Source of the DNA: a virus
Direction: 5' to 3' (one strand)
IMG/VR virus record: IMGVR_UViG_3300037882_002110
Location: 1-54,623 of that record
DNA length: 54,623 nt
Below, piece by piece: positions 768-38,232 of the stretch. The notes beneath the pieces were generated by a model. It saw only the letters and a list, made by a program, of their open reading frames with translations, did not search any database and was not told the DNA's origin. Within the stretch, counting starts at the first letter, position 1. The number at the start of each line of letters is the position of its first letter. Made by a program: the position numbers and the translations under genes.

Positions 768-773
768 TCTAAA

Positions 774-8300: not shown

Positions 8301-8330
8301 CGGGGTCTCCTTAAGCAGGTAGTCGTTCTC

Positions 8331-8681: not shown

Positions 8682-8698
8682 GGAAGTCTCCTTAAGAT

Positions 8699-9472: not shown

Positions 9473-9485
9473 CTTGTTCTCCCTT

Positions 9486-9526
9486 GCTTCTTTTTTCTTT
9501 TCGGCACGAAGAAGCAAAGACTTTAG
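9486..9526 (-). promoter_or_regulatory. sigma-28-like promoter element, copy c
   Basis: Minus strand: CTAAAGT (9526-9520), 15 bases, CCGAAAAGAAAAAAGAAGC (9504-9486). It directly precedes the PP-loop gene, whose ATG is at 9472. With the base before it, block 2 reads GCCGAAAA. Confidence 0.65.
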
Positions 9527-13449: not shown

Positions 13450-14049
13450 TCAGAGGGGTTGGTAGTCAGCAGCCTTGAAGACAGCCTCCACCCGTTTCAC
13501 AGGGTCGAGTTCCGTAAGCTCCAGATAGGTTTCGGTTTCCGACATGAAAGGCCCCAAGCCCCCATACAAAACCTGCGAATACGCGTAACTCATGCGTTCT
13601 GGAGAGTGTTTCTCGAAAACATCTCCTGCCTCTGGGACTCGAAAGGTTCGTCCTGGATTCACGTGTACGATAAGGACCTGATAATGCTTCAACGCTCGCA
13701 AGTACACGGACTGGTAGATCTTGGCTAGAAGATGCAAATTCTCTTTAGAGACGCCGCCCAGACCCCCATACACCATGCCGGAAATCCAGCACCTGTCCAT
13801 CACAACATCGCGAGACTGGTCGAACGTTGCAGCGTCCCAAACGTGGGAACAAGCTATCAGAAGCTGGCGCTCGAAAGGGCCAAAGCTGGGGTCGAATTTG
13901 GAAACGTCTCTCAGGAACCCCAGGGGTGAATCGGACGCTGGCTGGCGCATGGTCCTGGTGTACAGGCTACCCATTTTTTCGTACAAGTCTTTGGCCAGGG
14001 TAGACTTACCTACCCCGTCGCTGCCTTCCAACACAATAAGCTTTGGCAT
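13450..14049 (-). CDS. tmk: thymidylate kinase
   Basis: 199 residues. P-loop EGSDGVGKST near the N terminus, then VVMDRCWISGMVYGG, the DR(x) motif of dTMP kinases that binds the nucleotide phosphate, and VLIVHVNPGRTF as the strand before the lid. Phosphorylates dTMP to dTDP, following ThyX encoded just upstream. The ATG at 14049 is chosen over a GTG at 14052 because GGGGGTGA is better spaced from it. Promoter copy e lies directly upstream, so tmk and possibly the lysis genes start from there. Confidence 0.9.
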   Translation of the reverse strand: MPKLIVLEGSDGVGKSTLAKDLYEKMGSLYTRTMRQPASDSPLGFLRDVSKFDPSFGPFERQLLIACSHVWDAATFDQSRDVVMDRCWISGMVYGGLGGVSKENLHLLAKIYQSVYLRALKHYQVLIVHVNPGRTFRVPEAGDVFEKHSPERMSYAYSQVLYGGLGPFMSETETYLELTELDPVKRVEAVFKAADYQPL

Positions 14050-14057
14050 CACTTCAC

Positions 14058-14098: not shown

Positions 14099-14776
14099 TT
14101 AAATGTTCCAGCCGTTCTTTTCGAGACTCTCAAGAGCCACTGGACATACGTTTGCCTTGACGACTTCCTCGTACATGAGACGAGCCACCAATCTGATTTC
14201 GTCTTGAGCCTTCGGGGAGTTCCGTTGCTTTTGGAAGTTCGCCCATGACCTGAGATTGATAACAGTGACTCTTTCAGTCATGTTGTTTTGGGGCAAAACC
14301 CCTCGGTAGAATTCCCGCATCCGTTTGAACTGGTCGTTCGTCAGATTGCCCAGACCCTCTGCTGTTTTGAGGATCTGAAGGGTTCCCTCGTAGAAATCGT
14401 TCGCGGCTTTGCAGAGTTCGTCATATTGGCTCGATATGTTTTCGAATCCCATGGCCTTGATGTCGTCTGGAACCGCAAGCCATTCTCTGGGCATAGTCCG
14501 GTATCTACCGCTCATACCGTTGTGACTGGCTATCCTATGTGTCACGTGTTGACGGTCCGACGTGATGGGCATTTTTATCCAGAATCTCAAGACCACCGAT
14601 TCGAATGGTGTGGAGTGGCGGTCGTCGGCCAAACGCCGAACCAGCCTTTCGACGTCCTCATCAGTTCTTTTAGCCTTCCCGACCAATGTGGTGGACGAGG
14701 TCCATGCCGCTTCCGCGATGCTACGGTCGGAGCCCATGTGGTCCTGAAGCTGGACCCGGATTTGTGAATCAGTCAT
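14099..14776 (-). CDS. thyX: flavin-dependent thymidylate synthase
   Basis: 225 residues, usual length for ThyX, which methylates dUMP to dTMP using FAD, NADPH and methylene-tetrahydrofolate. The central motif reads QHVTHRIASHNGMSGRY, matching RHRxxSxNExSxRY with two changes: Thr for the first Arg and Gly for the Glu. Supporting segments are STPFESVVLRFWIKMPI at the N-terminal side and NMTERVTVINLRSWANFQKQR near the C terminus. It lies between the AP2-like protein and thymidylate kinase. Confidence 0.88.
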   Translation of the reverse strand: MTDSQIRVQLQDHMGSDRSIAEAAWTSSTTLVGKAKRTDEDVERLVRRLADDRHSTPFESVVLRFWIKMPITSDRQHVTHRIASHNGMSGRYRTMPREWLAVPDDIKAMGFENISSQYDELCKAANDFYEGTLQILKTAEGLGNLTNDQFKRMREFYRGVLPQNNMTERVTVINLRSWANFQKQRNSPKAQDEIRLVARLMYEEVVKANVCPVALESLEKNGWNI

Positions 14777-15017
14777 CCTTGGGCTTCTCCATCTTTGGTA
14801 TTATGCGTTGACCCTTGGGGGGAGGCCAATTGCCCTCGGCTTCCATCCGGACAGCTTCGTTGTAATAGTGGGCGCAAACGTCTTCGTCTGTGGAAGAACC
14901 CACGAACCTGCCTTTGAATTGGGCTCTGAAGACCTTCAACGTGGCGTCATAGTAGACACCCTTGTGTTTGGACGTTTTGGTCTTCGGGAACGGCGGGTCT
15001 TTTCTCTTGCTAGCCAC
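14769..15017 (-). CDS. AP2-domain DNA-binding protein
   Basis: 82 residues, nearly all one AP2-like domain: TSKHKGVYYDATLKVFRAQF..GRFVGSSTDEDVCAHYYNEA has the three-strand-plus-helix pattern of AP2 domains from phage HNH endonucleases and integrases. Basic N terminus. It lacks an endonuclease part, so it is either a small regulator or a remnant of a homing endonuclease. Overlaps the start of thyX by eight bases. Confidence 0.75.
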   Translation of the reverse strand: MASKRKDPPFPKTKTSKHKGVYYDATLKVFRAQFKGRFVGSSTDEDVCAHYYNEAVRMEAEGNWPPPKGQRIIPKMEKPKDD

Positions 15018-15023
15018 GATTGT

Positions 15024-16154
15024 TCACCCTCTCCAGATGAAGGAGTTGTGGTCCGCGCCGGTCCCGAGCATGACCACTTGGAGCCCCGTCACGTCTTCCA
15101 TCCTGTCCACGTAGGCCCTGACCTTCGGATGAAGCTCGCGGAATTCCTTCTCTCCTCCCCGGACGTCCGTCGACGACCAATGGATGTAGGAGGTGAAGTT
15201 CAGCACTATCTTCGTGGCCCCGCAGAGCTTAGCGGACTTCTCAAGGAGGGCCCACGAGGGGGTGAACACCCGGCGCAGTCGCTTGGTGACCGTGGTTAAT
15301 TCCTTGGACAGGAGAGCCTGAATCTCAGCTTCTGGCATTTCGGCGTCTACCCCGATCTGCTCCCAAGATGTCTCTTCCGAGTCGTCCATGAAACTGCCAG
15401 ACGAATGGACTTCGCCGGACTCGTCCTTGAAGTTTCCGACTCGAATCGGATACGACCTGCAGTTCATGTAGACGTCGCCCACCTGATGGGGCAGAATCAT
15501 CATGTCGGCTAGAGCCTGCTGAGGGGTGCAGTTCCGATAGGTGCCTTTGCGCAGTTCCGTCCCGTAGTCTAGTGACAGGGCGAATCCCTGGGCTACTTCG
15601 TGAAGGAACCCTCTGCCCTTAGCAAGCTCTGCCTGGATACCTTCGGCGAAGTCCCAAGGCTGAAGCGAAAGCTCCGGCGTCTTTTCACCCCAAAGCAGGG
15701 TGTCTCGCATCCGCATGGCCTTCATTGCGTAGGTAGCCCCGGCCCCAGACATGGTAGAAGCCACGTGAGCCACCGAGAGACCCCCACCAGGGGCTTCGAG
15801 AGCCTTATGGTGGGCCTGGGTGATAGCAGCCCTGGCATGAATGAAGAGGTCATAGCCGGGTTTGTATCCGGTGTGCTCAAACTCTTTGATGAGCGTATCG
15901 ATCTCGAAGGACGAGTTTGGCCCTATCCAGGCTTGCGGTTTGTGGCCCGTGATTTTGGGCAGAAGGCAGGGAGACGGCATGGCCTTGAAGACGAACTCGG
16001 CTTCAGGACTGCGCACCCAATGGCCTGCGTTAGGCCCGTTGCATGTGGCTACGTTCGGAATCTTGAATATATCCGCTAGTCTGGTAGATACAGCACCCTT
16101 GCCAGACGAACCGTGACTCGCGTCGTACAACAGATTATATGCTCCAAGCTTCAT
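15024..16154 (-). CDS. purZ: PurZ-type adenylosuccinate synthetase homologue (2-aminoadenine synthesis)
   Basis: 376 residues; ATG at 16154 seven bases after GGAG (a TTG lies 13 codons upstream). PurA joins IMP and aspartate using GTP. Here the GDEGKG loop reads GSSGKG at residues 15-20, so the catalytic Asp (Asp13 of E. coli PurA) is Ser, the change described for PurZ of Z-genome phages, which uses dGMP and aspartate to make the 2-amino-deoxyadenylate precursor. The NAGH motif with the conserved His is kept (residues 42-45). At the region matching the guanine-selective TKxD motif I see LNFTSY, so GTP may not be the phosphate donor. Shorter than bacterial PurA (~430), like PurZ. A replication-gene neighbourhood supports this reading. 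Confidence 0.82.
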   Translation of the reverse strand: MKLGAYNLLYDASHGSSGKGAVSTRLADIFKIPNVATCNGPNAGHWVRSPEAEFVFKAMPSPCLLPKITGHKPQAWIGPNSSFEIDTLIKEFEHTGYKPGYDLFIHARAAITQAHHKALEAPGGGLSVAHVASTMSGAGATYAMKAMRMRDTLLWGEKTPELSLQPWDFAEGIQAELAKGRGFLHEVAQGFALSLDYGTELRKGTYRNCTPQQALADMMILPHQVGDVYMNCRSYPIRVGNFKDESGEVHSSGSFMDDSEETSWEQIGVDAEMPEAEIQALLSKELTTVTKRLRRVFTPSWALLEKSAKLCGATKIVLNFTSYIHWSSTDVRGGEKEFRELHPKVRAYVDRMEDVTGLQVVMLGTGADHNSFIWRG

Positions 16155-16217
16155 CTGAAAACTCCATCCATAAACAGTTTCAGTAGTAGTCAAACGAAGA
16201 AGGAGTGGCGCTAGAGT

Positions 16218-16799
16218 TTAGGCTAGCGACGCGATCGTGAATCCTCTGTCAGTGAGATAGGCTCTGAGAGACACCAGCAGCTTCCTTGACGCCATGGCGT
16301 TGAATCCCAGGATGGACACGAGAGTCGTGAATGGGACGTCTTCATATTGATTGTACGATGGACAAGCCAGCGACTTTTCTCTAAAAGCTCGCAGGGTGCG
16401 ATCAGACGGAGCAATCAGCTCCTCCACAAGAATCGCGGCCCTTGGGGTTTTACGGGTCTTCGCCCACTCCCTCATGGCCTCGCAAAGCTCTCGATGGCAC
16501 ACCGCCTGGAATCCAGTCACCAAGGTGCTGAGAGGAGACTCAAACTGGTCCGAGAACTCTTCTGTGTCTCTCGTGTCCAGTCTCGCATCGAGGAATCGCC
16601 CCAAGTCCACGAACCTGTTCTTGAGGACAGTCATCACCATCCCCTTCTTGTCGGACTCGGACAAATGGTCAAGCTTCGGCAAGAGCTGCACCAGCTTGAG
16701 GCAGAGTTCCTGCTCCACATCCTCAACCGTCATGAGCCTGGACTTCTTGCATTTCTTGGCGTAGAATTTGACCATCTTCAAATAGGGCGACAGATCCAC
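16218..16799 (-). CDS. RNA polymerase sigma-factor-like protein
   Basis: 193 residues from a GTG at 16799, eight bases after AAGGAG; the frame continues six codons upstream without a site. Residues 10-70 resemble sigma region 2 (YAKKCKKSRLMTVEDVEQELCLKLVQLL...MVMTVLKNRFVDLGR), with DVEQE in the place of the usual DLxQE and NRFVDLGR like the -10-binding helix. The C-terminal part (FTTLVSILGFNAMASRKLLVSLRAYL) may be a region 4-like helix-turn-helix. Probably a phage sigma factor or antagonist; it lies between polymerase and PurZ. Confidence 0.65.
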   Translation of the reverse strand: MDLSPYLKMVKFYAKKCKKSRLMTVEDVEQELCLKLVQLLPKLDHLSESDKKGMVMTVLKNRFVDLGRFLDARLDTRDTEEFSDQFESPLSTLVTGFQAVCHRELCEAMREWAKTRKTPRAAILVEELIAPSDRTLRAFREKSLACPSYNQYEDVPFTTLVSILGFNAMASRKLLVSLRAYLTDRGFTIASLA

Positions 16800-16829
16800 A
16801 GGGCAGGCTCCTTCCACAGGGTGCAGGCG

Positions 16830-19706
16830 TCAGATGGTCGGGGACTCCTTCTTGCAGACGGTGATTCGAACTGTCTGCTCCACCGTGTCGGTGTAGAAGA
16901 TGTCGTCTCCGAATGAAGCGGGGTCGATGGGCTTTTCGTCGATGATATTGGTGTGTACCACGTAGGCCATACCCATGTCAAGTACCATATCCCCGATATC
17001 GCGACGAAGCCCGTGACAAACAAAAACGAGAGAGTCCTCGGACACGGATTCTATCTCACTTTTAACGGCACCACCCCAAGAGCGTCCGATTTCAAAGTCG
17101 ATTCGTGTGGGGCAGATCATCCAGGGATGCGCGGTCTGGATGTTGTCCTCGCCGTGGAATTTCAAGATTCGCACCAGTTCGAAGATCTCGCCCGGATAAA
17201 CGTCAAGCTCCAAGGAGTCGTGCACCGTGGCCAGGAATCGCGTTCTCATGCCACGGTCGACCAGCTCTTTGCCTACTTTCTTGACCATGTCGAACACGAT
17301 GTCAGAGCCTGCGCTCTGGATGGGGTAGTTGACCGCTAAGCGCTTAGCTTCCGCGATCTCCCATTCTTTCTTCGAGAACGCTTGCGGGACCGGAATGACT
17401 CTGCCAAACATCGTCTGCACGGTGCCCGTTTTGAGTGTGAATTTCTCGACGGACTTTTTCCACGCGGCCAGATGTCCGGCCCCAGAATAGAAGTTCCGCA
17501 TGATGGAACCCGCTTCTTCCTTGGAGCACCCGATTTCGTCTGCTAGCCCTTCCTCGCCTTTGCCGTACAGGATGGCGAAGTTCACCCGTTTGCCAATAGA
17601 GCGCTGGACCGAGGTGACTTCTTCAGTCTTGCATTTGTAAATGACAGCAGCCGTGGCCGTGTGCGCGTCCACGCCTTGCTTGAACGGCTCGATGAAACTT
17701 GGTTCCTGGGCGACAGCGGCCACAACCCGAAGTTCGAGCTGGCTAAAGTCCACGGCCACGATGATTCCGCCGTCCTCCCTCCACCGAGACGAGATGAGCC
17801 TCTTGAGGTCGCACCTGTTGGGCATTGAGTGGAACGCGCTGGCGAGCCTTCCAGTCACAGTCCCGTTCAGTCTGAACTCAGGCTTGTAGAGTCCGTTGTG
17901 GGCCGAGTTCGGCATCGAATAGACGTAGTCCTTAAGCAGCTTCGATATGCGCTTGAACTCGGAAACTTTCTTCACGAAGAGCTTGGCCTCGCGCCATTTC
18001 GCAGCCTTGACCGGGTCCTTCTCTTCTAACGTTTCCAGATGGGTGTCGACGAGAACTTTGCTTAGAAAGAACCCTCTGGCGTCCTTGTTGAGGGACGGCA
18101 TTTTCTTCTCAGTCATGAAGTCTTCCATGGCTGGCAAAGCGTAAAACCTCTTGTCGTAGGCGATTTCGGAAACCTTAGCCGCGTTGTTCAAGTTGAAAGC
18201 GTTCTCCCGGAGCTGTTCCATGGAGACTGGTTTCTTCTTTTTGAGATTCGCCTCGATGAGAGGCGCGAGATAGGGAGCCGTATAGGCGTCGACGATGGGC
18301 AGAGCGTCGAGTTCGGCACGCTTGCGAACCAGATATTCGGTGTAAGAAGTCTCCAGGAACTTCCACGCCTCCATATCCATATACATCCCAGAAGTTTCGC
18401 AATCAGCGAACATAGGGATAGCCTCGGTCACAAACGCGGCCATCCTCTTTTGACCTTCAGGTATGACATGCTCGAAATGCTTAAACAGCAAGCGGTTGAA
18501 ATAGGAGTCGAGAGCCGCATACTCCCCTAGGACCGATGTAGGGATATTGGAGTAAGTCCGTTCTTTGATAAGCTTGAATTTCTTGAGGTACTCTTGGACC
18601 TGAAGTTCCCAGTCGTCTTTGACGTCGAAATACCTGCGGCAGAGACCCTTGAGAGAATTGTCGATTCCAAAGCCCATCGAGTTGAACTGAACCGACGAGT
18701 TGAAGGTATCGTTCAGAATCCTGATCTTGGATGCCTTCGCGACATTGTGATACAGAATCCAACGGATATCGAACAGAAGGTTGTGACCAACGATAGGGAT
18801 AGTCTCGATGACCTCCCCTATCTTGGACAGCAGCTTGGCCCGTTCCGACTCAGACACGTTGAACGGGGTCTCTGGGCACTTGAAGGATAGGTCCTTGTGG
18901 TGAACCACATTAGTGACCTCTAGAGGGATGGCGATGCCTCTGGAATCCGCGTCGTGGGCAAACGATGCCATGATGATTCGGCCATCCCAAGGGGTCAGGG
19001 CCGAAGTTTCAAGGTCAAAAATGACGTAGGAAATCTCGCCAGCCTTGTAGAGCCTCAAGGCTTCGTCCATGTAGGCCATGGAGTCGTCGGGATTCAAGGT
19101 GGCGAACCGTTCATTAGACTCTAGATTGTTGTGGTTCTTGCCATCCACCTGCAGGTGCTCTCCACCCCCTCTAAACACTCTGTCGATGTAGGTCTTGAGT
19201 TCGGAGGTCATCGCCGGAGATTTTTCGGCGTGTCGTGGGTCCAGGTTCACCGTGAGGTCGAATTTCACACCCCCAGCCGTAGCCGGTCTGGTGGAACCCC
19301 TGTCCTTGGTTATCTTGAATTCCTTATCCTTGAGCAGGGATTTGGCCACCAGCGCTCCAAAGCCCATGACCCGGGGTTTGGATTCGAACGACTGCAGTTC
19401 CATGCCCAGATAGTTCGAACATTGGGATATCTGTTTATCCGAAGGTTCGGCGAAGGACTCCCGGGAGATGGAATTCTCATACTTCGGACATTTGACCAAA
19501 TAGGTCAAATACCAGGAGTCATCATCCGGTAGCATGGCTCGAATCGACGTGGCCACGGGGCCCTCAAACGCCTTCCCGAAATCGTCTTTCTTTTCTGGAA
19601 ACGGAAGGATGAGAACCACATCTGGATTCGTGGAGTTCCCCATCCCAGCGGTTCTTGGGGTCTGGCATTGAGAAAAGAGACCACACTCTCTGCAAATCTT
19701 ATTCAT
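16830..19706 (-). CDS. family A DNA polymerase with N-terminal UDG4-like domain
   Basis: 958 residues; ATG at 19706 seven bases after GGAG. N-terminal ~150 residues resemble family 4 uracil-DNA glycosylase: Cys pairs CREC at 5-8, VKCP near 72 and QCSNYL near 95 match the iron-sulfur ligands, and LPFPEKKDDFGKAFEGP matches GEAPGxxEDxxGxPFVG, but the catalytic Glu is not kept. Next a 3'-5' exonuclease with FDLE (about 230), HNLLFD (308) and YAALD (396), then the polymerase with VDFSQLELR (652), RSIGKRVNFAILYG (702) and HDSLE (829). A C-terminal tail of ~75 residues follows. The proofreading family A type next to purZ matches DpoZ of Z-genome phages; phage SPO1 polymerase also has a UDG-like N terminus. 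Confidence 0.92.
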   Translation of the reverse strand: MNKICRECGLFSQCQTPRTAGMGNSTNPDVVLILPFPEKKDDFGKAFEGPVATSIRAMLPDDDSWYLTYLVKCPKYENSISRESFAEPSDKQISQCSNYLGMELQSFESKPRVMGFGALVAKSLLKDKEFKITKDRGSTRPATAGGVKFDLTVNLDPRHAEKSPAMTSELKTYIDRVFRGGGEHLQVDGKNHNNLESNERFATLNPDDSMAYMDEALRLYKAGEISYVIFDLETSALTPWDGRIIMASFAHDADSRGIAIPLEVTNVVHHKDLSFKCPETPFNVSESERAKLLSKIGEVIETIPIVGHNLLFDIRWILYHNVAKASKIRILNDTFNSSVQFNSMGFGIDNSLKGLCRRYFDVKDDWELQVQEYLKKFKLIKERTYSNIPTSVLGEYAALDSYFNRLLFKHFEHVIPEGQKRMAAFVTEAIPMFADCETSGMYMDMEAWKFLETSYTEYLVRKRAELDALPIVDAYTAPYLAPLIEANLKKKKPVSMEQLRENAFNLNNAAKVSEIAYDKRFYALPAMEDFMTEKKMPSLNKDARGFFLSKVLVDTHLETLEEKDPVKAAKWREAKLFVKKVSEFKRISKLLKDYVYSMPNSAHNGLYKPEFRLNGTVTGRLASAFHSMPNRCDLKRLISSRWREDGGIIVAVDFSQLELRVVAAVAQEPSFIEPFKQGVDAHTATAAVIYKCKTEEVTSVQRSIGKRVNFAILYGKGEEGLADEIGCSKEEAGSIMRNFYSGAGHLAAWKKSVEKFTLKTGTVQTMFGRVIPVPQAFSKKEWEIAEAKRLAVNYPIQSAGSDIVFDMVKKVGKELVDRGMRTRFLATVHDSLELDVYPGEIFELVRILKFHGEDNIQTAHPWMICPTRIDFEIGRSWGGAVKSEIESVSEDSLVFVCHGLRRDIGDMVLDMGMAYVVHTNIIDEKPIDPASFGDDIFYTDTVEQTVRITVCKKESPTI

Positions 19707-21021
19707 ATCCAGACTCCAATTCCACAAACGAACATATGCTCATATCTCTTTTAGCTCGAATTTTGGTTTTGCCCTTTCCGCGTCTGACCATATCAACGAA
19801 CAAGATGCCGTTGTCAGATTCGTCGGTGAAGTTCAGGGTAGTGATGGAATACAGCAGGTGGGCCTTTTTTGCCGAGTGGGCCAGATTGTCAGCCTTCAGA
19901 AGCTTGTCCTGGTTGGCGTTATCCCAGGAGTCTCGTTGGGGCTGGGCGAAGGTGACGATTGGACACTTCAGAGAGTCTGCCAGCGAGATGAGGTCCATGT
20001 AGATCTTGCCAGAGTTCTCATACATAGACTCGTCTTTGCCCCCAGACGGAATCAAAAGGTCGTCGTAATCTATGAGAACGATGTCTGGCTTCTGACCAGT
20101 CTTGGTCATGACCTTCGTTATCCAAGCCCGGATGGTCGTCGTGTTGATAGTGTTCGGCGACCAGTAGTTCATGTAAAGGTTGGGCTTGACCTTGTTGTAC
20201 TTGTTCATCCGCTGGGCATACTGCGGGTTGTTCTCCGAGATGATATCGTCGATGGTCATCTCGGTCATGTTCATCGCATACTTCATCGCCAAGTCAATAA
20301 GCTTGATTTCGAGCGAGATATGGAAGACGACCTTACCGGCTTTCAGGTTGGCTGCACCGATGCAAACCCCTAGACTCGTTTTGCCGCTCTTGGGAGGAGC
20401 GCAACACACGTGAAGTTCCCCAGCCCCGAAGCCCCCCATCAGGCAGTCATCCCAAGACGGGAACCCTGTGGTGCAAAGCTTCGACCGGTCGTAGGCCAGT
20501 CTGTAAATTTCTGGCAAAGAAGCGAGGTCCTTGAATTCCATCCCGACTCGGTTACCGACCCCGACCGCTACCGCATCGTCGATGAGTTTGATGCATCTCT
20601 CGTAAGGCTGGTTCTGTTCGAACACCTCGACGGACTTGTAGAGAGCGATCTTCAGGGCCTGCCTGCGAACGAACGAAATCATGGACTCAATGACGGAGCG
20701 GTCGGACCCAACGTCCACCTTGGCTATCACCCTGGCTTCGGTCGCGAGTTCCTTGGCCATGGCGGAGTTCACATCGCGCCCGTGCATGATGTATTCTTCG
20801 ACCTTGACCGACAGGAGGTCCGAATCTATTGGTGTCTCGTAGGTGTAGACGTGGTTTTTGATTAGCTCCAGCAGGATTCTGCAAGGGGACGTTTCGAAGT
20901 ATTCTGGCTTGAGTTCCGACCCATATTGGTGTGCAAAGGTCACATCAGACATCAGAAGCCTGAGGACCCGTCGCTGGAACTCAAGCGAATACATAGACTC
21001 GACAAGGTCTTCACTATCCAC
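19699..21021 (-). CDS. DnaB-like replicative helicase
   Basis: 440 residues; GTG start nine bases after AAGGAG. N-terminal helical domain as in DnaB, then a RecA-fold ATPase with Walker A PPKSGKTS (about 210), Walker B DIVLIDYDDLL (about 320) and VTFAQPQRDS as motif H3-like segment. Should unwind DNA at the fork as a hexamer with the primase encoded upstream. Overlaps the polymerase gene by eight bases, so the two are co-translated. Confidence 0.88.
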   Translation of the reverse strand: MDSEDLVESMYSLEFQRRVLRLLMSDVTFAHQYGSELKPEYFETSPCRILLELIKNHVYTYETPIDSDLLSVKVEEYIMHGRDVNSAMAKELATEARVIAKVDVGSDRSVIESMISFVRRQALKIALYKSVEVFEQNQPYERCIKLIDDAVAVGVGNRVGMEFKDLASLPEIYRLAYDRSKLCTTGFPSWDDCLMGGFGAGELHVCCAPPKSGKTSLGVCIGAANLKAGKVVFHISLEIKLIDLAMKYAMNMTEMTIDDIISENNPQYAQRMNKYNKVKPNLYMNYWSPNTINTTTIRAWITKVMTKTGQKPDIVLIDYDDLLIPSGGKDESMYENSGKIYMDLISLADSLKCPIVTFAQPQRDSWDNANQDKLLKADNLAHSAKKAHLLYSITTLNFTDESDNGILFVDMVRRGKGKTKIRAKRDMSICSFVELESGYE

Positions 21022-21137: not shown

Positions 21138-22034
21138 TTACATGTGGACACGACGAGCTGTTCGGACAAGAGACTTGAACTCTCTGGTTGAAAGCTCATC
21201 TGGGTCTTTGCCGAGCGGCAGGATGACCGAGTTCACTTTGAACCCGGCCTGCAGAAATCTTCGATGCATTCGATTCCGAGTCTGGACAGTCACGTCCTCG
21301 GTCCCGTCGAGACAAACATAAACTTCATCCGACCTCGACCGTAGCTTGGATATCTGTATGTCGGTCAAGTTCTTTCCCAAGAGGCAGACGGCGGGAATCC
21401 CTGTGGACCTATGGACCGCGATCGCGGATATGATACCCTCGCAAAGAATGAAAGGGTCGGAAGTCACAGAATCCAGACCATAGATCACACCCGATTTGTC
21501 TCCGACCGAGTTCAGATACTTAATATTGGCATCAATATAGCTACGACCAACGACGTAGGTGACTTCTCCGTCTTCCACGAATGGGAACAGAACGCGCCCT
21601 GACCACCTGGAGACCTTCGTCTCGCCCTCGAAATAGGTCACCCCTGTTCGGAGACCATACTTTTCTATCTCAGCGTCGGTGAACCTACGCTTCTTGGTCA
21701 TGAAGTCATAGGCTATTGGTGTCTTCTCTTTGGTCAGAGGCAGAGAAATCAGGTCTAAATCGAATTTGACCGTAGGGAATTTTGGTCCTAGGAGTCTGGC
21801 TTTCAGGGTGGACAGGTTCTCGGAAACCGCATTGCTGTCCTGAGCAGCCAGCCCGAGTTCCCTGATGGCACCCCTAGATTCGCATCTGTAGCAGAAGAAA
21901 AGGCCCTTCCGGACATTCACTGTCAGGTTCTTGTGGGTGACCCGATGCCCCAGAGACTCGCAAAATGGACAGTATGACCTGACCTCCCCCTTGGGAGATA
22001 TTTCGCCTAAGCTAGCTAGGTCAAATGGTGCCAT
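21138..22034 (-). CDS. Toprim DNA primase with zinc finger
   Basis: 298 residues from ATG 22034 (a TTG 11 codons upstream is possible). The zinc-binding domain reads CPFCESLGHR..KNLTVNVRKGLFFCYRCESRGAI, with four Cys. The Toprim core shows LCEGIISAIA (Glu), VYVCLDGTED (DxT in place of DxD) and LPLGKDPDEL. Makes RNA primers for the lagging strand with the DnaB-like helicase. Starts inside the 3' end of the deaminase-like gene. Confidence 0.87.
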   Translation of the reverse strand: MAPFDLASLGEISPKGEVRSYCPFCESLGHRVTHKNLTVNVRKGLFFCYRCESRGAIRELGLAAQDSNAVSENLSTLKARLLGPKFPTVKFDLDLISLPLTKEKTPIAYDFMTKKRRFTDAEIEKYGLRTGVTYFEGETKVSRWSGRVLFPFVEDGEVTYVVGRSYIDANIKYLNSVGDKSGVIYGLDSVTSDPFILCEGIISAIAVHRSTGIPAVCLLGKNLTDIQISKLRSRSDEVYVCLDGTEDVTVQTRNRMHRRFLQAGFKVNSVILPLGKDPDELSTREFKSLVRTARRVHM

Positions 22035-22968
22035 CGTTTGGTCCGAACTCTCTTTCAAGGTATTCAAGCGGATGAAGCAGGAACTCGCGTTCTCTGATGA
22101 GAGAAGTCTCTAAAGAAGCGAACGCGTCGGTGCAAATAGTAAAACTAAGTCCAGACTGCTGGAACCCGGTCACTATCCGCTTCATATCGGCCACCGAGCG
22201 GACAGCGCCCGAAGCTAGGTTCGACGACGGACACACCTCGAACATAATCTCACGGCTTTTAGCAGCTTCCACGAGGTCAGGGGACTTTAGTATCCAAATC
22301 CCATGCCCGATACGCCTCACGTTAAGCTCATGGATGACATAGTCAAGCTCGGACTCGGTGGCATCCGTTAAGACTTCACCCGCGTGACAGGTAGTTTCTA
22401 AACCTTTGTCCGACGCTTGATGAAAAAGCGCCCTGAAATTCTCGTAGGGCTGGACACCGTAAGGCCCAGCAAGATCTATGGCCCTCACTCCGTCCGAGGA
22501 TTTGTATTTGATGGCTTTAGCCAAGATGGCTTCATTCTCGTTCTGGGTGCAGTCGGTACCCATGCAAAAGGCCAAACTACCGGATATACCGTAAGTCCAA
22601 CAAGCTCTCCTCATCCCGGACAGAGCAGACTGGATAATGGCGTCGAGGTCGATTTGTCCCTTAAGGGACCTCTTGACCGGATTGAAGCGAACTTCGAGAA
22701 CGTCGACTCCAGACAGAGCGGCATGTTTGAAGGCGTTAAACGACGACAGCTCCACACCCATAGGGGAGGACTGCAGACGGTCTATCTCATGGAGGAGTGA
22801 CAGATATACTTCCAGAGATTCCCTTTTGCCCATCTGCATTGTCCGGGCGAATTCTTTGTAGGTCCGAACTGAAAGCTTGACCCCAGATTCAACGACAATC
22901 TCCCAAAGAGCGTCAGAAGAGACAGAGCCTGAGAGGTGCGCGTGAGTATCTATATTCAAAGCGGACAT
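22021..22968 (-). CDS. adenosine/AMP-deaminase-like protein
   Basis: 315 residues, usual ADA length. Metal and catalytic motifs appear in order: DTHAHLSG (HxH), IDLAGPYG, TCHAGE (His and catalytic Glu), RIGHG (His) and FEVCPSSNL. The last motif, normally STDDP, reads CTDAFAS: the metal-binding Asp stays but the following Asp, which in ADA contacts the purine, is Ala. It should be a zinc deaminase of an adenine (deoxy)nucleoside or nucleotide with altered substrate binding. Its place among replication genes of a likely Z-genome phage suggests it removes adenine deoxynucleotides or their precursors; that is inference. Confidence 0.82.
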   Translation of the reverse strand: MSALNIDTHAHLSGSVSSDALWEIVVESGVKLSVRTYKEFARTMQMGKRESLEVYLSLLHEIDRLQSSPMGVELSSFNAFKHAALSGVDVLEVRFNPVKRSLKGQIDLDAIIQSALSGMRRACWTYGISGSLAFCMGTDCTQNENEAILAKAIKYKSSDGVRAIDLAGPYGVQPYENFRALFHQASDKGLETTCHAGEVLTDATESELDYVIHELNVRRIGHGIWILKSPDLVEAAKSREIMFEVCPSSNLASGAVRSVADMKRIVTGFQQSGLSFTICTDAFASLETSLIREREFLLHPLEYLEREFGPNDGTI

Positions 22969-22973: not shown

Positions 22974-24614
22974 TTAAACTTCCTTGTCGTTGTGAGAAGC
23001 TATTTGACGCCAGAATTCTTTGTCGTCTGTCAGAATAGTGGCTCCAACCTGTTTGTACAGATGAAGCCGGGTTCGGGAATGATTCAGCAAAAACCCGTGA
23101 CTTTTGTCCATGTAGTCGAGGACGTAGACCCGATTGAGGCCAGATTTTTTCTTACGAACCCCTCGACCCAGTCTTTGCAGAGACTTGATGGCAGATTTGC
23201 CCCCACCAGCCAGGATCACGGCCCCAATGGAGGGAATGTTGAAACCCGTATCTAGAGCCGACGACCCTATCAGGATATCGATTTCACCCCCGGCCACCTG
23301 ATAACGAACTGAATCGTAGTCGATAGGGGAATCTTCGACCTGACCCAAGGGGTCGACAATAAGGCCCTTAGAGCCCCCGAACGCGCAAACTACCCTGACT
23401 TGCCTCAAAGCCTCCATCAGGGTCCGGGCATGTTCCAGACGTTGCACCAGGATCAGGACTTGATGGCCCCATTTGACCATTTCCAGCGCGGATTTCACTA
23501 TATGCAAATTCCTGTCCCTGGACTGAACGATATTTTCGTCGTAGACCTTCTGAAAGTTGAAGCCCGACGACGTGGGAGAGCCGATAGGCTTGAAACACAT
23601 CACGGGTTCCGCGATGTATCCGTTGTCGATCAGGAATTTGTAGTCTATGGAGAAAATGGGGCCACCGGACATAGCCCAAACCATGGCATCGCCAGGGTCT
23701 TTGGTGGGGTCCTCGTTGAGGAACGGAGAACCCGTCATAGCTATCTTAAACTTGTACTCGTGACAATGCTTTACGATAGAAGAAACCGACTCCGACCGCA
23801 TCCCGTGCCCTTCGTCTATGACGAAAGTGTCTGCAGCTTCAAGGAGTTCCAGAGTCTTCGGGTCGTTGGCCTTGATTCCCGAAGCCAGCGACTGGAACGT
23901 GGCTACGGTTATCAGATTTCCCTTCTTAGACCTACCGTCCCAGGACGACACTCTGGATTCGAATAGCGGCTCTACCTTGAAATCGTCCACGAACTGGTGA
24001 ATCAGGGCCGTGGTCGGGACCACCACAACGGCCCTTTTGGACGAGGTCAGGTCTCCCCTGTCCAAAAGAGTCTTTAGGAAGCCTATTGCGCAAAGGGTCT
24101 TTCCAGCCGACGTGGGGAGGACGAGTATCCCAGATTTATGGGTAACTGCAGCGTTGATAGCAGCCACCTGATATGGATACAGCGAGAACTCCCCGACTTG
24201 GAGTTCGGATAGTTTCAGCCTGTCCTTGGGTGTGGGTTCCACGTCGTCGACGAGTTCGACCGGATACGGGGATTTTTTCTTGATGAGAGAATACAAATTC
24301 TTGTAGGTCTTCAGATTGTCCAAGGACCCCCAGACCAGACGAATCTGGACCATGCGAGTGACTTGAAATATAGGAAGAGCCTGTTCGGCAGGCGACCCCG
24401 GTTCTCTGAAATAGACCTTGTTCCCGAGAATCCGAGTCACTTTACAAATCTGATTTCGCTTAGAACCCTGAGAAGGCTTGATATAGTCTTCCGGCAATAG
24501 GTCCTTGAGAGTCCCCTCTCTGACATACCAAGTGAAGGTAGCGTTCAGGAAGCTGACCTCGGCGTCGGTGGCTTCTATCAACCTTATCAGGTAGCCCTTA
24601 GCTTTGAATTTCAC
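22974..24614 (-). CDS. superfamily 2 helicase, UvsW-like
   Basis: 546 residues. N-terminal ~140-residue accessory domain, then YPYQ (Q motif region), LPTSAGKT (Walker A), VVVVPTTAL (Ia), DEGH (II), AMTGSP (III), SALDTGFNIP (V) and QRLGRGVRKK (VI). T4 UvsW has the same layout and remodels replication and recombination intermediates. ATG overlaps the stop of recA (ATGA). Slight note: motif II is DEGH rather than DEAH. Confidence 0.88.
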   Translation of the reverse strand: MKFKAKGYLIRLIEATDAEVSFLNATFTWYVREGTLKDLLPEDYIKPSQGSKRNQICKVTRILGNKVYFREPGSPAEQALPIFQVTRMVQIRLVWGSLDNLKTYKNLYSLIKKKSPYPVELVDDVEPTPKDRLKLSELQVGEFSLYPYQVAAINAAVTHKSGILVLPTSAGKTLCAIGFLKTLLDRGDLTSSKRAVVVVPTTALIHQFVDDFKVEPLFESRVSSWDGRSKKGNLITVATFQSLASGIKANDPKTLELLEAADTFVIDEGHGMRSESVSSIVKHCHEYKFKIAMTGSPFLNEDPTKDPGDAMVWAMSGGPIFSIDYKFLIDNGYIAEPVMCFKPIGSPTSSGFNFQKVYDENIVQSRDRNLHIVKSALEMVKWGHQVLILVQRLEHARTLMEALRQVRVVCAFGGSKGLIVDPLGQVEDSPIDYDSVRYQVAGGEIDILIGSSALDTGFNIPSIGAVILAGGGKSAIKSLQRLGRGVRKKKSGLNRVYVLDYMDKSHGFLLNHSRTRLHLYKQVGATILTDDKEFWRQIASHNDKEV

Positions 24615-27394: not shown

Positions 27395-27428
27395 CCAGTT
27401 TTTCGACTCAAAACGGCACTCCCGCTAG
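27395..27428 (-). promoter_or_regulatory. degenerate sigma-28-like element
   Basis: Minus strand: CTAGCGG (27428-27422), 15 bases, TCGAAAAACTGG (27406-27395), matching spacing and the CGAAAA core of the five good copies but not block 1. It would drive the HNH-dUTPase gene. Weak candidate. Confidence 0.3.
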
Positions 27429-28372
27429 TCTTCCTCCGAAGGTGTCGTGGTTTCCTTCTTGGACATTTTCTTGATGGCGCTGGCACACGAGAATTCATGT
27501 GGGCAATCGCCACACACTTCCGTTTCCGGATTGTAAACCTTCGGATTTGAGAAGCACGCCGGAGCCCCAGCCGGACGAGGGGTGGACGTGGAAGAAGCAG
27601 TCTTAGATTTCTGGGCTTCCTTCTTCAGACCGGCAGGTTCTTCATCAGCGTCATGGTCGTTATGACCTTTCACCGACCCTGTCTCAGCCTTCATCATGAG
27701 ATTGTTTTCGAAATGGTCACGGAGGGCATCCGCCATCTCCTGAACTTCTTTGACTTTGTCGTCCGAGGGGTCTGGAAAGATTTTGTCGAGGTTGTAGAGC
27801 TTGGACAGAATGGCTTCGATCCCATCTGCTGTGGGAGCAATAGCACGGGCCGACATCGACGGACGGATGTCGAAGGCCCCGCCCTTCTTTTTACGATGAA
27901 CTCGAAGGTCACGACCGAGCTTCGGGTCGAAGAAAACCCGCTCATCTTCGTCTTCCCAGCACGCCATGATGAGGTCGATGAAGGCTTTAGACCCAGACGC
28001 GATGTGGACCTGATTGGGGTCGATATTCGCCTTGGTTTTGTCAGACAAAATCAGAGCGTTGAAGTTGATCTGGGGTGCAGAAGCCATTCTGGAAGTGTCG
28101 ATGCGATGCTCGAATTCCGTGAGGACGTTGCACACGGGGCATTCCAAATCATAGATGCGCAAACATTTGCACATCTTGTTGTCTGGCATCTGATAGTGGG
28201 ACATGCCGATCTTAAACGGCATTTCCATTTGTGGGTGTTTGGGCAAAACACGGATTTTGACTTCCTCAGTCCCGTTTGGGAACTTGTAGAATTCAAGATC
28301 TCCACCACTGCGTCCAGGGGTCTTACCAGAGAGGACCTTCTTGAGGAAACTGACGCTGTTAGCATTGGCCAT
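27425..28372 (-). CDS. gp32-like single-stranded DNA-binding protein
   Basis: 315 residues. N-terminal FLKKVL..; DNA-binding core with zinc-type Cys (CKCLRIYDLECPVC, about 68-82) and FDPKLGRDL; an acidic linker (HNDHDADEE) and a second Cys cluster near the C terminus (CFSNPKVYNPETEVCGDCPHEFSC) ending in acidic residues. The layout matches T4 gp32-like proteins, which coat ssDNA and recruit replication partners through their acidic tail. AGGAG lies 11 bases before the ATG. Confidence 0.82.
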   Translation of the reverse strand: MANANSVSFLKKVLSGKTPGRSGGDLEFYKFPNGTEEVKIRVLPKHPQMEMPFKIGMSHYQMPDNKMCKCLRIYDLECPVCNVLTEFEHRIDTSRMASAPQINFNALILSDKTKANIDPNQVHIASGSKAFIDLIMACWEDEDERVFFDPKLGRDLRVHRKKKGGAFDIRPSMSARAIAPTADGIEAILSKLYNLDKIFPDPSDDKVKEVQEMADALRDHFENNLMMKAETGSVKGHNDHDADEEPAGLKKEAQKSKTASSTSTPRPAGAPACFSNPKVYNPETEVCGDCPHEFSCASAIKKMSKKETTTPSEED

Positions 28373-29324: not shown

Positions 29325-30980
29325 TCACTCCAAGTAGGATACGCCGTCTCTCTTGACAGCGTGGATGAATTGATTGAATCTGGACTTAAGCTCGCTCATG
29401 TGGGTCACTACATATATACACTTCTCCTGACCATACATTTCCTCCAGAGCTTCCAAGACAGAAGACACCCCGGAAGCATCCAGCGAATCGAACACCTCGT
29501 CAAAGACTGCGAGATTGAACGACACACCAGACGAGTGTTCCATTAGCTTCTGTATGGAGAGAACGATAGCCACGTCGAACCGACGCTTCTCCCCCCCAGA
29601 CATCCCGTTGAACTCGACCTGCTCTCCCCCGTCGAAACATTGAATTTCGAGACCGGATTCTTTGGGTGACAGAGAAATCCGACAGGTCATGGATGAGAAG
29701 AAGAAACCGATAATCTGAGACAGGATTCTGTTGAGGGTCTCAAGGTGTCCCCCCAGGACTCGCGACCTGAAGACCCCAGACGGGGACAGGATGTCATACA
29801 GAGCTTGCAAAGACTCCCGCTTGGACTCCAACGATAGAAGCTGCTCTTGGACGGCATTAGCATTCGAGGCCAGCTCCATCAGCTTCTCAGACTTCCCCTG
29901 TATATCCACGGACTGGGACAAGGACGCGAGTTCAGCGGCAAGTCTGGTCAGATTGGTGTTGACCTGAGCCCTAGCTGTCTCTCGGGCGTTGCGCTCCCTC
30001 TCGTAAACCTCCAGCTTCTTGGACCTCAAGACCGCCCTATGGTTCAAGTCCTTCAAAATCTGAAGTTCTTCTGTCAGGCTAACGACAGCCGCTCTTTGGG
30101 CTTCGATGTGGCTTTGTTCAAACGGACGATTGCAGGCCATGCAGGAAGAGTTTATCAGAGACTCTTTAGCAGACTCGACCGCGCGTTCCTTCATCCTGAG
30201 TTCCACACCCAGGGCCTGGATTTTCTGGAGGGCTCTGTCGAGAGCTTCTGCCTGAGAATCCAAATTCGGGATCTCGGCAAGCTGGAATTCCTGGTCCTTG
30301 ATCTTGGATTGGATGTCCAGTTCTCTGTCCGAGGTGATGGAAGACAGGACTTCAATTTCCTTACGCAGAGTGGCGACTTCTTTGTCCAGAGCAGCGTAGG
30401 ACGCGGATTGAATCTTCAGGGACTTGTCCAGAGATTTTATCTTGGGGCCCAAGTTCTCCCGAAACGAATCCCATATGCCCATTTGAACGACTTCCTCGAA
30501 GAACACCTTTCGAGGAGTAGGGGACAACCTGGAGAAGTTGACTGGCATTCCCTGGGCTATAAGAACCGTGGAAATGAAGGTTTCGTACGAAAGTGGTATT
30601 AGCTTAGCTATCTCAGCGTCCACCATGCTCGAAAGCCTGTGAGACACATTCTCGCCATCTCGGAACAGATGAACCTGGGATTCAAATTCCCTATGCTTAA
30701 GGTACCTGTCTATCCTGAAACCATGGCCCGCGACCCGGAATTCCAAGGAGACCTTCAGGTTTCCGCCCTTCTTGTGGGTCGGGTCCCTTGGGTCTCTCGG
30801 AGTCTTCTTATAAATGGCGAACAGGATAGCTTCGACTATTGAAGACTTCCCGCTAGCATTTGACGACCCAGTATCTGTATTTAAACCAGATAATAGGGTT
30901 TGCCCAGGAAGGAACTCCAGGTCAAATTCTCTGTAAGACAGGAAATTTTCGGCAGAAATCCTGGTGAATTGTATTCTCAT
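29325..30980 (-). CDS. gp46/SbcC/Rad50-like ATPase
   Basis: 551 residues. Walker A GSSNASGKSSIVEA (about 38-51), long coiled coils broken by a zinc hook CMAC near residue 275, ABC signature NGMSGGEKRRFDVA (about 460), Walker B LAVFDEVFDSLD and VTHMSEL. With the gp47-like nuclease it should form the end-processing complex that resects dsDNA for recombination-dependent replication. Much shorter coiled coils than bacterial SbcC, as in T4 gp46. The two partners are 6 kb apart here. Confidence 0.92.
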   Translation of the reverse strand: MRIQFTRISAENFLSYREFDLEFLPGQTLLSGLNTDTGSSNASGKSSIVEAILFAIYKKTPRDPRDPTHKKGGNLKVSLEFRVAGHGFRIDRYLKHREFESQVHLFRDGENVSHRLSSMVDAEIAKLIPLSYETFISTVLIAQGMPVNFSRLSPTPRKVFFEEVVQMGIWDSFRENLGPKIKSLDKSLKIQSASYAALDKEVATLRKEIEVLSSITSDRELDIQSKIKDQEFQLAEIPNLDSQAEALDRALQKIQALGVELRMKERAVESAKESLINSSCMACNRPFEQSHIEAQRAAVVSLTEELQILKDLNHRAVLRSKKLEVYERERNARETARAQVNTNLTRLAAELASLSQSVDIQGKSEKLMELASNANAVQEQLLSLESKRESLQALYDILSPSGVFRSRVLGGHLETLNRILSQIIGFFFSSMTCRISLSPKESGLEIQCFDGGEQVEFNGMSGGEKRRFDVAIVLSIQKLMEHSSGVSFNLAVFDEVFDSLDASGVSSVLEALEEMYGQEKCIYVVTHMSELKSRFNQFIHAVKRDGVSYLE

Positions 30981-34268: not shown

Positions 34269-34291
34269 TAGGTAGCTCCTTGGGTTTATGG

Positions 34292-36740: not shown

Positions 36741-37802
36741 TCAGTCCGCGTCCATAAGCTCCTTCGAAACTTCCTCAAAGTCTGAAAGTAGTTCCGGGTG
36801 GTTCTGACTCAGGAACTCGCGGAGAGACTCCCTTGGGGAAGAGGCATCGGAAGGCGTGTGGTCGGAATGGTCTTCGGAGAGCCTGGAAACCACGTGGACG
36901 TGCCAAAAGGGTCCGAGCACCTTGGCCATGTCGTCTGGAAGCTCCGGGGCTCTCAGGGACACTATGACTTCGTCTGGCTTGAAGAATTTCAGAGTGTCCA
37001 GATGTTCCGGAGTCATCTTCAGGTAGTGGCGCGACTTGTGATTCCTGACTCGACGAACAGTGTACCCATCTGGGTGGTTCTCGTCGAAATCGAACAGCAG
37101 AACCCCACCGGCCCCGGACAGGTCCATACGATTGAATCTGTTCTGCACCAGAGACCCCGGATAGTGAACATCTCCAACGGATTGGGCCAGATGTTGGTCT
37201 CCAGCGATGATAGGACAAGGCCAGGGCGAGGAAGGGACGGCGGATTTGGACGAAATCCCGGTCTCGTAGAGAGCCCCCTGGAACTCGAAATGGGTCACCA
37301 GAACGGCATGGGTCTCAGACATCCTCCGAAGGCTGTCGAAGAAAGCTTCAGGGTCCTTGCAGTAGGGAACGACCCCCAAGGGTCCGCCTTTCAAGGGAAT
37401 GGTCTTCTCGACCGCGAGAAGAATGGGGTGTCCGTGGGGGGTGTGACTCAAACTTGGGCAAAGGGCAGACAGCAAGTGAATCCCAAGGTCATCGTTGAAG
37501 GTGTCGTGGTTCCCCGGGAGCAGGTAGAAATGGGCTCCGACCGTGGCGCAGGCTGAAGAGATGGTAGACAAACCCAGCGATGCCGCATGCAGGACCGTGG
37601 TGGTCACGGAATCTGGGTGGTGGAAGAGGTCTCCGAGGAAGAAGACTGCTTCCGGCTTATGGAGACGGATCTGTTCGGCGACGAATTCAAATCCAAGGAG
37701 GGTGTTCTCAAGCTCCATGGAGAGCCCCCGGGACCCTGGCAGATTAAACGGCGGAAAGGAGGACCGGTCACGGAGATGAACATCGGCAAAGGCCAGAATC
37801 AT
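36741..37802 (-). CDS. gp47/SbcD/Mre11-like nuclease
   Basis: 353 residues from ATG 37802; an upstream ATG/GTG (37880-37883) would add 27 residues without family similarity. Phosphoesterase motifs: FADVHL (DxH), FFLGDLFH (GD), LLPGNHD and THFEF; the last, usually GHxH, reads GDQH, so one metal ligand may differ. Works with the gp46-like ATPase in DNA end resection. It is the first gene of the long minus-strand block and follows an AT-rich promoter-like stretch. Confidence 0.88.
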   Translation of the reverse strand: MILAFADVHLRDRSSFPPFNLPGSRGLSMELENTLLGFEFVAEQIRLHKPEAVFFLGDLFHHPDSVTTTVLHAASLGLSTISSACATVGAHFYLLPGNHDTFNDDLGIHLLSALCPSLSHTPHGHPILLAVEKTIPLKGGPLGVVPYCKDPEAFFDSLRRMSETHAVLVTHFEFQGALYETGISSKSAVPSSPWPCPIIAGDQHLAQSVGDVHYPGSLVQNRFNRMDLSGAGGVLLFDFDENHPDGYTVRRVRNHKSRHYLKMTPEHLDTLKFFKPDEVIVSLRAPELPDDMAKVLGPFWHVHVVSRLSEDHSDHTPSDASSPRESLREFLSQNHPELLSDFEEVSKELMDAD

Positions 37803-38232
37803 TGGTGTGGGGCTCCAGGAGTTAGGGTCATCCTGAAGAGAACGGAGGCCAGCTCGGGGAGACCTCTTTGAGATTCTCATCACAGATATAATATGCTCCC
37901 CTCGAAGGGGCTCCGTTCTCCTCTCTCGCTGGCTACTTATGATTTGCTGCCTGCTCGCCTATGCCGTGGGGTCTCCCCTGGATGGACGGAAGAAATCTCC
38001 CCTACTCCTTGGGCTTCACGGCCTTTGTCATGAGTGGGTCTGGGGTGATTTCCTCCTCTCCCAAACCAACCTGTCCAGGGGTCCAAGGCCGCAGAAGCGA
38101 AGGCAGAGCCGCAGCGGCGGCCCCGGGGAAAGATCGACCAAACACTCGAAAGGACAGAAACCCAACCCGAAACCCAGAAGGAACCCAGGAAGCCAATTCT
38201 ACGACTAACCTAAACTACACTTGAGGACCTCA
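37803..38232. other. divergent intergenic region, promoter and repeat-rich
   Basis: About 430 bases between divergent operons, partly used by the possible longer gp47 start. TATAAT occurs at 37887-37892 (+), and the minus strand reads TATTATAT there. GC-rich inverted repeats follow (CCCC TCGAA GGGG at ~37900; GGGG TCT CCCC at ~37970; CCCCTGG paired with CCAGGGG). At 38157-38190 an AAACCCA/AACCCA unit repeats three times with 12-base spacing. Open frames of 87-89 codons occur but lack ribosome sites and look unlike proteins. A replication origin or regulatory region is possible. Confidence 0.4.

What the first reader, a model, noticed from the sequence alone, without database searches (positions are those of the whole stretch)
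15024..19706. PurZ-type enzyme beside a proofreading family A polymerase: candidate 2-aminoadenine (Z) genome
Seen: PurA homologue with GSSGKG instead of GDEGKG (catalytic Asp to Ser), NAGH kept, no TKxD at the expected place, short length, two genes from a PolA with exonuclease motifs. Known: these traits mark PurZ and DpoZ of phages S-2L and VC8, whose DNA replaces A by 2-aminoadenine. Inference: this phage belongs to that group, but its set differs: DatZ and MazZ were not found in this window.
Basis: partly seen in the sequence, partly recalled or inferred. Interest (0 to 1): 0.85.

Follow-up and report, generated by a model that had tools for sequence, protein, structure and literature searches.

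The report
PurZ cluster with an adenosine deaminase
This fragment of a large phage carries a real PurZ-type gene, the enzyme known phages use to replace adenine with 2-aminoadenine in their DNA; it belongs to a large-phage PurZ group I found no report of, with an adenosine deaminase in the place of the usual dATP-removing partner gene.

Summary
The protein at 15024-16154 (-) is PurZ-type: Ser at the PurA catalytic Asp13, NAGH and TTVT kept, no TKxD, and most of the S-2L dGMP pocket conserved. In a tree with PurA as outgroup it sits deep among PurZ, in a clade (SH-aLRT 99) of PurZ mostly from large phage contigs (up to 437 kb) that I found in no paper of the library searched. Its sister's phage carries the classical PurZ-pyrophosphohydrolase-DatZ row. 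The "DpoZ" part is not supported: the polymerase joins neither known DpoZ clade and lacks the phiVC8-type insertions and signature residues. DatZ and MazZ are absent from this 54.6 kb fragment.

A colinear relative (G081) keeps the deaminase with PurZ and adds the lyase PurB. Deaminases are rare in phages, yet 5 of 10 IMG/VR contigs found with one also carry a Ser-type PurZ; over 65 PurZ records, 9 have the deaminase, 13 DatZ, none both. I propose that the deaminase replaces DatZ as the sink for deoxyadenosine (inferred). Whether the genome really contains Z is untested. New variant of a known kind.

The parts
15024..16154 (-). PurZ-type 2-amino-(deoxy)adenylosuccinate synthetase, 376 aa (mechanical ORF reaches 16193)
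   Evidence: Pfam PF00709, PHROG 1211, PDB hits, tree, S-2L pocket mapping
16218..16817 (-). sigma-70-region-2-like protein, between polymerase and PurZ, kept in relative G081
   Evidence: PF04542 E 8e-4, below cut-off; PHROG 1740; 23% identical to the gene in G081
16830..19706 (-). family A DNA polymerase with 3'-5' exonuclease domain, 958 aa; not a DpoZ of either known clade
   Evidence: PF00476, PF01612; tree; signature residues; motifs
19699..21021 (-). DnaB-like replicative helicase
   Evidence: PF03796, PHROG 19; 44% in G081
21138..22067 (-). DnaG-like primase (Toprim); start uncertain, frame overlaps ADA by 47 bases
   Evidence: PF13155, PHROG 47; 45% in G081
22021..22968 (-). adenosine-deaminase-family enzyme; zinc and catalytic residues kept, second Asp of the TDD motif is Ala
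   Evidence: PF00962 E 1.9e-39; alignments; AF2 model and Foldseek to V. cholerae ADA
22974..24614 (-). UvsW-like helicase
   Evidence: PHROG 16, PF04851
24611..25927 (-). UvsX/RecA-like recombinase
   Evidence: PHROG 97, PF00154
26205..27356 (-). dUTPase domain (residues about 244-383) fused to an N-terminal endonuclease VII/HNH domain; possible dATP-hydrolysing partner, unproven
   Evidence: PF00692 E 4e-16; PHROG 135 and 1035; unfused dUTPase at the same place in G081
14769..15017 (-). 82 aa HNH-like fragment
   Evidence: PHROG 99 E 0.004
14099..14776 (-). ThyX thymidylate synthase
   Evidence: PF02511 E 2e-36
13450..14052 (-). thymidylate-kinase-like deoxynucleotide kinase
   Evidence: PF02223 E 2e-9; 40% in G081, next to PurZ there
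27425..28372 (-). gp32-like single-strand binding protein
   Evidence: PF08804 E 0.0014; 30% to the colinear gene in G081
29325..30980 (-). Rad50/gp46-like nuclease subunit
   Evidence: PF02463, PF13476; colinear in G081
36741..37883 (-). Mre11/gp47-like nuclease subunit
   Evidence: PF00149; colinear in G081

Best explanation
This is a PurZ-centred nucleotide and replication cluster of a large phage whose DNA most likely carries 2-aminoadenine (Z) in place of some or all adenine. PurZ joins aspartate to dGMP; a PurB lyase (host-encoded here, phage-encoded in relative G081) yields dZMP, and kinases yield dZTP. A second arm lowers competing deoxyadenosine nucleotides. Known Z phages use DatZ, or DutZ with DmtZ. 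Here I propose a different end point: dATP is hydrolysed (by PurZ itself, the cluster dUTPase or host phosphatases) to dAMP and deoxyadenosine, and the phage adenosine deaminase irreversibly converts deoxyadenosine (or a near substrate) to deoxyinosine, keeping adenine out and returning purine to the guanine pool that feeds PurZ. The polymerase looks like an ordinary proofreading family A enzyme, so selectivity may come mainly from the nucleotide pool, as in S-2L. Shown here: gene identities, Ser at Asp13, conserved pocket, tree placement, conserved synteny, and co-occurrence of deaminase with PurZ. Inferred: substrates, Z in the virion, and the deaminase's role. The confidence is for the Z-DNA reading as a whole; the deaminase step alone I hold at about 0.4.
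For: PurZ identity; Ser in all 80 IMG/VR relatives; tree within PurZ with PurA outgroup support 100 and sister G002 support 99. S-2L pocket residues kept: S29, N55, A56, G57, H58, S146, T147, R161, Q202, T218, R251, V252, TTVT, R307, N332, F333, G379 (residue roles from PMC8342488). The sister phage G002 has PurZ, a dATP/dGTP-pyrophosphohydrolase-like gene and DatZ (PF12917 1.8e-9, PHROG 7076) in a row. Deaminase: identity; cluster kept in G081 with PurB added. Deaminase found in 9 of 65 PurZ records against 0 of 46 PurZ-negative polymerase relatives, and in only about 10 of 50,697 phage records. 5 of 10 IMG/VR contigs found with a deaminase carry PurZ, all with Ser, including a separate PurZ lineage (G074, G076). 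Deaminase and DatZ never coincide: 9 and 13 of 65, 0 both.
Against: No substrate assay or virion nucleoside data exist. The polymerase shows no DpoZ signature. DatZ and MazZ are absent, though the contig is a fragment. The deaminase/DatZ exclusion is clade-confounded: hypergeometric p about 0.04 on 28 contigs over 150 kb, and independent pairs are too few to reach 0.05. G003 carries the deaminase together with a dUTPase-DmtZ-Adk row, so it is not a simple swap in every case. The window deaminase has Ala at the second Asp of the active site, so its substrate may not be adenosine. Ser at Asp13 also occurs in chromosomal kinase-PurZ fusions of unknown function. The window has a DNA methyltransferase gene with an NPPY motif (47165-47773), which could act on ordinary adenine. 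The deaminase control contigs were mostly shorter than the PurZ contigs.
Confidence: 0.7

Rival explanations
1. PurZ makes dZTP, but Z is only partly incorporated or is used for something other than wholesale genome substitution, because the polymerase is ordinary and dATP removal is incomplete.
For: Polymerase outside both DpoZ clades and without the signatures; no DatZ or MazZ in the window; adenine-type methyltransferase motif NPPY.
Against: S-2L substitutes fully with a Z-unspecific PrimPol (PMC8065100 abstract; PMC8599892), so an ordinary polymerase does not exclude it; the sister phage has the classical set.
Confidence: 0.17
2. The enzyme is a phage PurA: it makes adenylosuccinate from IMP to raise the adenine nucleotide supply.
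For: Same fold; Foldseek ranks P. horikoshii PurA level with PurZ structures.
Against: Ser for the catalytic Asp; TKxD lost; the Val that blocks the ribose 2'-OH kept; tree outside PurA with support 100. A deaminase that destroys adenine nucleosides would work against it.
Confidence: 0.06
3. PurZ is as proposed, but the adenosine deaminase is unrelated to Z: a general salvage or anti-defence enzyme that large phages pick up. (This competes with the deaminase step only, not with the Z reading.)
For: The window deaminase has a changed active-site Asp; 5 of 10 deaminase-bearing viral contigs lack PurZ; the family includes ATP-deaminating defence effectors (Cad1 among the structural hits).
Against: Co-occurrence with a rare gene, PurZ, in at least four places on the PurZ tree; conserved neighbourhood in G081; never with DatZ in 65 records.
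Confidence: 0.35

Closest known systems
PurZ of phiVC8 and S-2L (Z-cluster purZ-mazZ-datZ)
   Same: Enzyme family, Asp13-to-Ser, NAGH, TTVT loop, most dGMP pocket residues
   Different: About 30% identity; separate large-phage clade; DatZ and MazZ not in the window; polymerase is not DpoZ; adenosine deaminase and dUTPase in the cluster; W59 for T53 and A380 for P336 in the triphosphate/adenine site
PurZ0 system of Arthrobacter, Gordonia and Microbacterium phages (PurZ0, DutZ, DmtZ)
   Same: PurZ-type synthetase with a dUTPase gene and no DatZ
   Different: PurZ0 is a distant clade (support 100); the window dUTPase is fused to an HNH domain and is not shown to be DutZ; no DmtZ; a deaminase instead
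Bacillus phage vB_BpsS-140
   Same: Nearest isolate by PurZ (33%); also has thyX, dut, UvsW and a RecA
   Different: GSEGKG motif, separate branch, adenylate kinase gene, no deaminase found
Adenosine deaminase (V. cholerae 6n91, mouse 1add)
   Same: Fold (TM-score about 0.83) and metal/catalytic residues HxH, HAGE, HG, first Asp
   Different: 20-27% identity; second Asp (mouse Asp296, which contacts N7 of the base by my knowledge) is Ala

Membership tests
PurZ (2-amino-deoxyadenylosuccinate synthetase) | homology to PurA/PurZ over the full length and same fold | tested here: met
   AF2 model pLDDT 88, Foldseek to PurA/PurZ about 1e-25
PurZ (2-amino-deoxyadenylosuccinate synthetase) | catalytic Asp13 of PurA replaced by Ser | tested here: met
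   S29; also in all 80 IMG/VR relatives
PurZ (2-amino-deoxyadenylosuccinate synthetase) | dGMP pocket and 2'-OH-excluding Val of S-2L PurZ | tested here: met
   N55, A56, T147, R161, Q202, R251, V252, TTVT, R307 kept; Y203 and C204 changed to K and G
PurZ (2-amino-deoxyadenylosuccinate synthetase) | placement with PurZ and outside PurA in a tree | tested here: met
   own clade apart from phiVC8/S-2L PurZ and PurZ0
PurZ (2-amino-deoxyadenylosuccinate synthetase) | dGMP, not IMP, as substrate | not testable with these tools
   needs purified enzyme
DpoZ (Z-selective family A polymerase) | membership in the phiVC8-like or Wayne-like clade | tested here: not met
   tree: both clades 100, window outside
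DpoZ (Z-selective family A polymerase) | phiVC8-like insertions and residues L455, F459, G548 | tested here: not met
   criteria from PMC8599892
DpoZ (Z-selective family A polymerase) | preference for dZTP over dATP | not testable with these tools
   needs primer extension assay
Z-cluster (PurZ + DatZ + MazZ) | DatZ near PurZ | tested here: not met
   PF12917 absent at E<=10; present in sister G002
Z-cluster (PurZ + DatZ + MazZ) | MazZ or DUF550 near PurZ | tested here: not met
   local models and Pfam on 64 ORFs; fragment, so the whole genome is not excluded
PurZ0 system | PurZ0-clade enzyme | tested here: not met
PurZ0 system | DutZ-clade dUTPase | tested here: inconclusive
   dUTPase present; nearest phage hits of the G081 orthologue are mostly ordinary dUTPases; no tree built
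Adenosine deaminase | HxH, HAGE, HG, Asp zinc and catalytic residues | tested here: met
Adenosine deaminase | second Asp that contacts the base (TDD) | tested here: not met
   TDA in window, TDS in G081, TDN or TDD elsewhere
Genome with 2-aminoadenine | 2-aminoadenine in virion DNA | not testable with these tools
   needs LC-MS

The most novel reading that the evidence does not exclude
Large and jumbo phages hold an unreported lineage of Z-DNA systems in which an adenosine-deaminase-family enzyme replaces DatZ (or DutZ/DmtZ) as the step that removes deoxyadenosine, recycling it toward the guanine pool from which Z is made; the deaminase's altered active site would reflect a deoxyadenylate-type substrate.
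Probability: 0.4. Interest if true: 0.75.

Novelty: new variant of a known kind. Interest (0 to 1): 0.62.

Why it matters
If true, Z-DNA extends from the 38-82 kb isolates seen here to phages of 100-437 kb, which would be the largest Z genomes I know of. It would also add a further independent enzyme solution to adenine exclusion, next to DatZ and DutZ/DmtZ. The 2026 survey (PMC12884076) used NCBI viruses only and mentions no deaminase; no paper in the library searched joins PurZ with jumbo phages as a subject, or 2-aminoadenine with adenosine deaminase.

Tried and rejected
Polymerase as DpoZ: rejected by tree and signatures. dUTPase as DutZ: not shown, since the colinear orthologue's nearest phage relatives are mostly ordinary dUTPases. 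Single-protein scans of IMG/VR with PurZ and with the deaminase found nothing; alignments were needed. A deaminase alignment with all types was too diverse to scan. Ser at Asp13 as proof of a Z phage: rejected, because chromosomal kinase-PurZ fusions have it too. Deaminase/DatZ exclusion as a statistical proof: rejected as too weak and clade-confounded. PurZ of G081 as a close orthologue: its sequence is only 28% identical on a very long branch, so its place in the tree is unsure.
Full report
WHAT IS THERE. The window is a 54,623-base IMG/VR virus record, a linear fragment. The minus strand from about 37.9 to 13.4 kb is a replication and nucleotide module in this order: Mre11-like, Rad50-like, RusA/PDDEXK nuclease, gp32-like, dUTPase (fused to an HNH/endonuclease VII domain), UvsX, UvsW, adenosine deaminase, primase, DnaB, family A polymerase, sigma-like, PurZ, a small HNH-like ORF, ThyX, thymidylate-kinase-like. 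From UvsX to the kinase most genes are spaced by -47 to +63 bases, with one 116-base gap.

OBSERVATION. The PurZ-type protein is confirmed by Pfam, PHROG 1211 and PDB sequence hits. It has Ser29 where PurA has Asp13, NAGH, TTVT, and no TKxD. Mapped onto S-2L PurZ, the base-pocket and 2'-OH-excluding residues named in PMC8342488 are mostly kept; exceptions are H27, A145, K216, G217 in the dGMP site and W59, S335, A380 in the triphosphate/adenine site. An AF2 model from 15 related proteins has pLDDT 88 and matches PurA and PurZ structures about equally, so the fold alone does not decide between them. The gene probably starts at ATG 16154 and the polymerase at ATG 19706.

TREE. A scan of IMG/VR with a PurZ alignment found 403 relatives, of which 80 were kept; all have Ser at the Asp13 position. 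With canonical PurA from bacterial and archaeal genomes as outgroup, PurA and PurZ0 are each separate with support 100, and the window is sister to L019 with support 99, inside a large-phage clade (37 rows, support 99). A second build gives the same picture (50 rows, support 99). Contigs in this clade reach 437 kb, though some are short fragments. The isolates phiVC8, S-2L, ZP6 and their kin form another clade. I found no paper in the library that treats PurZ in jumbo phages; a 2026 review of jumbo phages does not mention 2-aminoadenine, PurZ or deaminases. Most subscription papers are not covered.

GENE CONTENT OF THE RELATIVES. The sister phage G002 (118 kb) has PurZ, a gene with weak similarity to dATP/dGTP pyrophosphohydrolase, and DatZ in a row. 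G003 has PurZ, the deaminase, and a ThyX-dUTPase-DmtZ-Adk row. The DatZ tally is 13 of 65 PurZ records, one of them under the curated cut-off. The deaminase tally is 9 of 65. No record has both. Among 28 contigs over 150 kb the counts are 9 and 7, hypergeometric p 0.043 for no overlap. On the tree the deaminase needs at least four changes and DatZ at least three, and independent pairs never go the same way, but they are too few for significance.

THE DEAMINASE. The protein at 22021-22968 is a full-length member of PF00962 with HxH, HAGE, HG and the first Asp of TDD; the second is Ala. Foldseek of the model gives V. cholerae adenosine deaminase first. In phage records the family is rare: 8 to 10 of 50,697, several of which may be bacterial contigs. 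In IMG/VR an alignment scan found 10 contigs with a relative; 5 carry PF00709 and all five are Ser-type, two of them from a PurZ lineage far from the window's. As a control I took 50 contigs with the polymerases most like the window's: 4 have PurZ, 1 has the deaminase, and that one (G081) has PurZ; 0 of 46 without PurZ have it. These control contigs are mostly shorter than the PurZ contigs, so the control is imperfect.

COLINEAR RELATIVE. G081 (67.5 kb) has Mre11, Rad50, gp32, dUTPase, UvsX, UvsW, PurB, deaminase, primase, ThyX, DnaB, polymerase, sigma-like, PurZ and kinase, colinear with the window except for ThyX. Identities to the window are 40-45% for the deaminase, primase, helicase, polymerase, UvsX and kinase, but only 28% for PurZ. 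So deaminase and PurZ stay in one neighbourhood across wide divergence, and the relative adds the lyase that follows PurZ in the pathway.

POLYMERASE. The window polymerase lies outside both DpoZ clades, nearest to SPO1-like polymerases of phages not known for Z and to other polymerases beside PurZ, without resolution. It lacks the three phiVC8-type insertions and the L455, F459 and G548 signatures. By sequence it cannot be called DpoZ. That does not exclude a Z genome, because S-2L uses a polymerase without Z preference (PMC8065100, PMC8599892).

MECHANISM. Shown: genes, residues, placement, synteny, co-occurrence. From established pathway knowledge: PurZ plus PurB make dZMP from dGMP and aspartate; known Z phages also deplete dATP by DatZ, or by DutZ/DUF5664 and DmtZ (PMC12884076). 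Inferred: here deoxyadenosine is removed by deamination, which is irreversible and returns purine toward guanine. The altered Asp leaves open that the true substrate is a nucleotide or the free base.

VERDICT. The PurZ call stands; the DpoZ call does not; the deaminase is the new element. Novelty: new variant of a known kind. Main uncertainty: I know of no chemistry done on any phage of this clade.

Noticed in passing
L236, L227, L225, L255, L267 and others (PurZ-like domain near 8001-9044 of most of these loci): A 530-600 aa chromosomal family in diverse bacteria and archaea fuses an N-terminal P-loop kinase-like domain to a PurZ0-like domain with GSEGKG; most genomes checked that carry it also have a canonical PurA. 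Function unknown to me.
   Followed up: partly
L045 and L079, PurZ ORFs of 820 and 1212 aa: PurZ genes of two large phages are interrupted in frame by intein-like insertions, one at NAGH|C and, in L079, a second in the YPQC loop, i.e. at active-site motifs.
   Followed up: no
window 26205-27356 (-): dUTPase fused in frame to an N-terminal endonuclease VII/HNH domain; the colinear relative G081 has an unfused dUTPase at this place.
   Followed up: partly
window 47165-47773 (+): DNA methyltransferase-like protein with an NPPY motif typical of adenine-N6 enzymes, odd in a phage expected to lack adenine.
   Followed up: partly
window 16-2375 (+): End of a UDP-sugar dehydrogenase-like ORF (GGTCFPKD, by my reading) and a family 2 glycosyltransferase of cellulose-synthase type, unusual cargo for a phage.
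   Followed up: no
window 42979-44286 (+): SPFH/Band 7 domain protein with strong coding signal.
   Followed up: no
window 8699-9517 (-): PAPS-reductase-like protein (PF01507, PHROG 424).
   Followed up: no
window 34050-34376 (-): Extremely acidic Asp/Glu-rich C-terminal half in a 108 aa ORF.
   Followed up: no
L332 1420-3373 (+): In large phage G061 the deaminase lies directly before a methionine-aminopeptidase-like gene.
   Followed up: no
L358 3807-8330 (+): A 13 kb viral contig with a window-like polymerase and a DatZ-like gene but no PurZ on the fragment.
   Followed up: no
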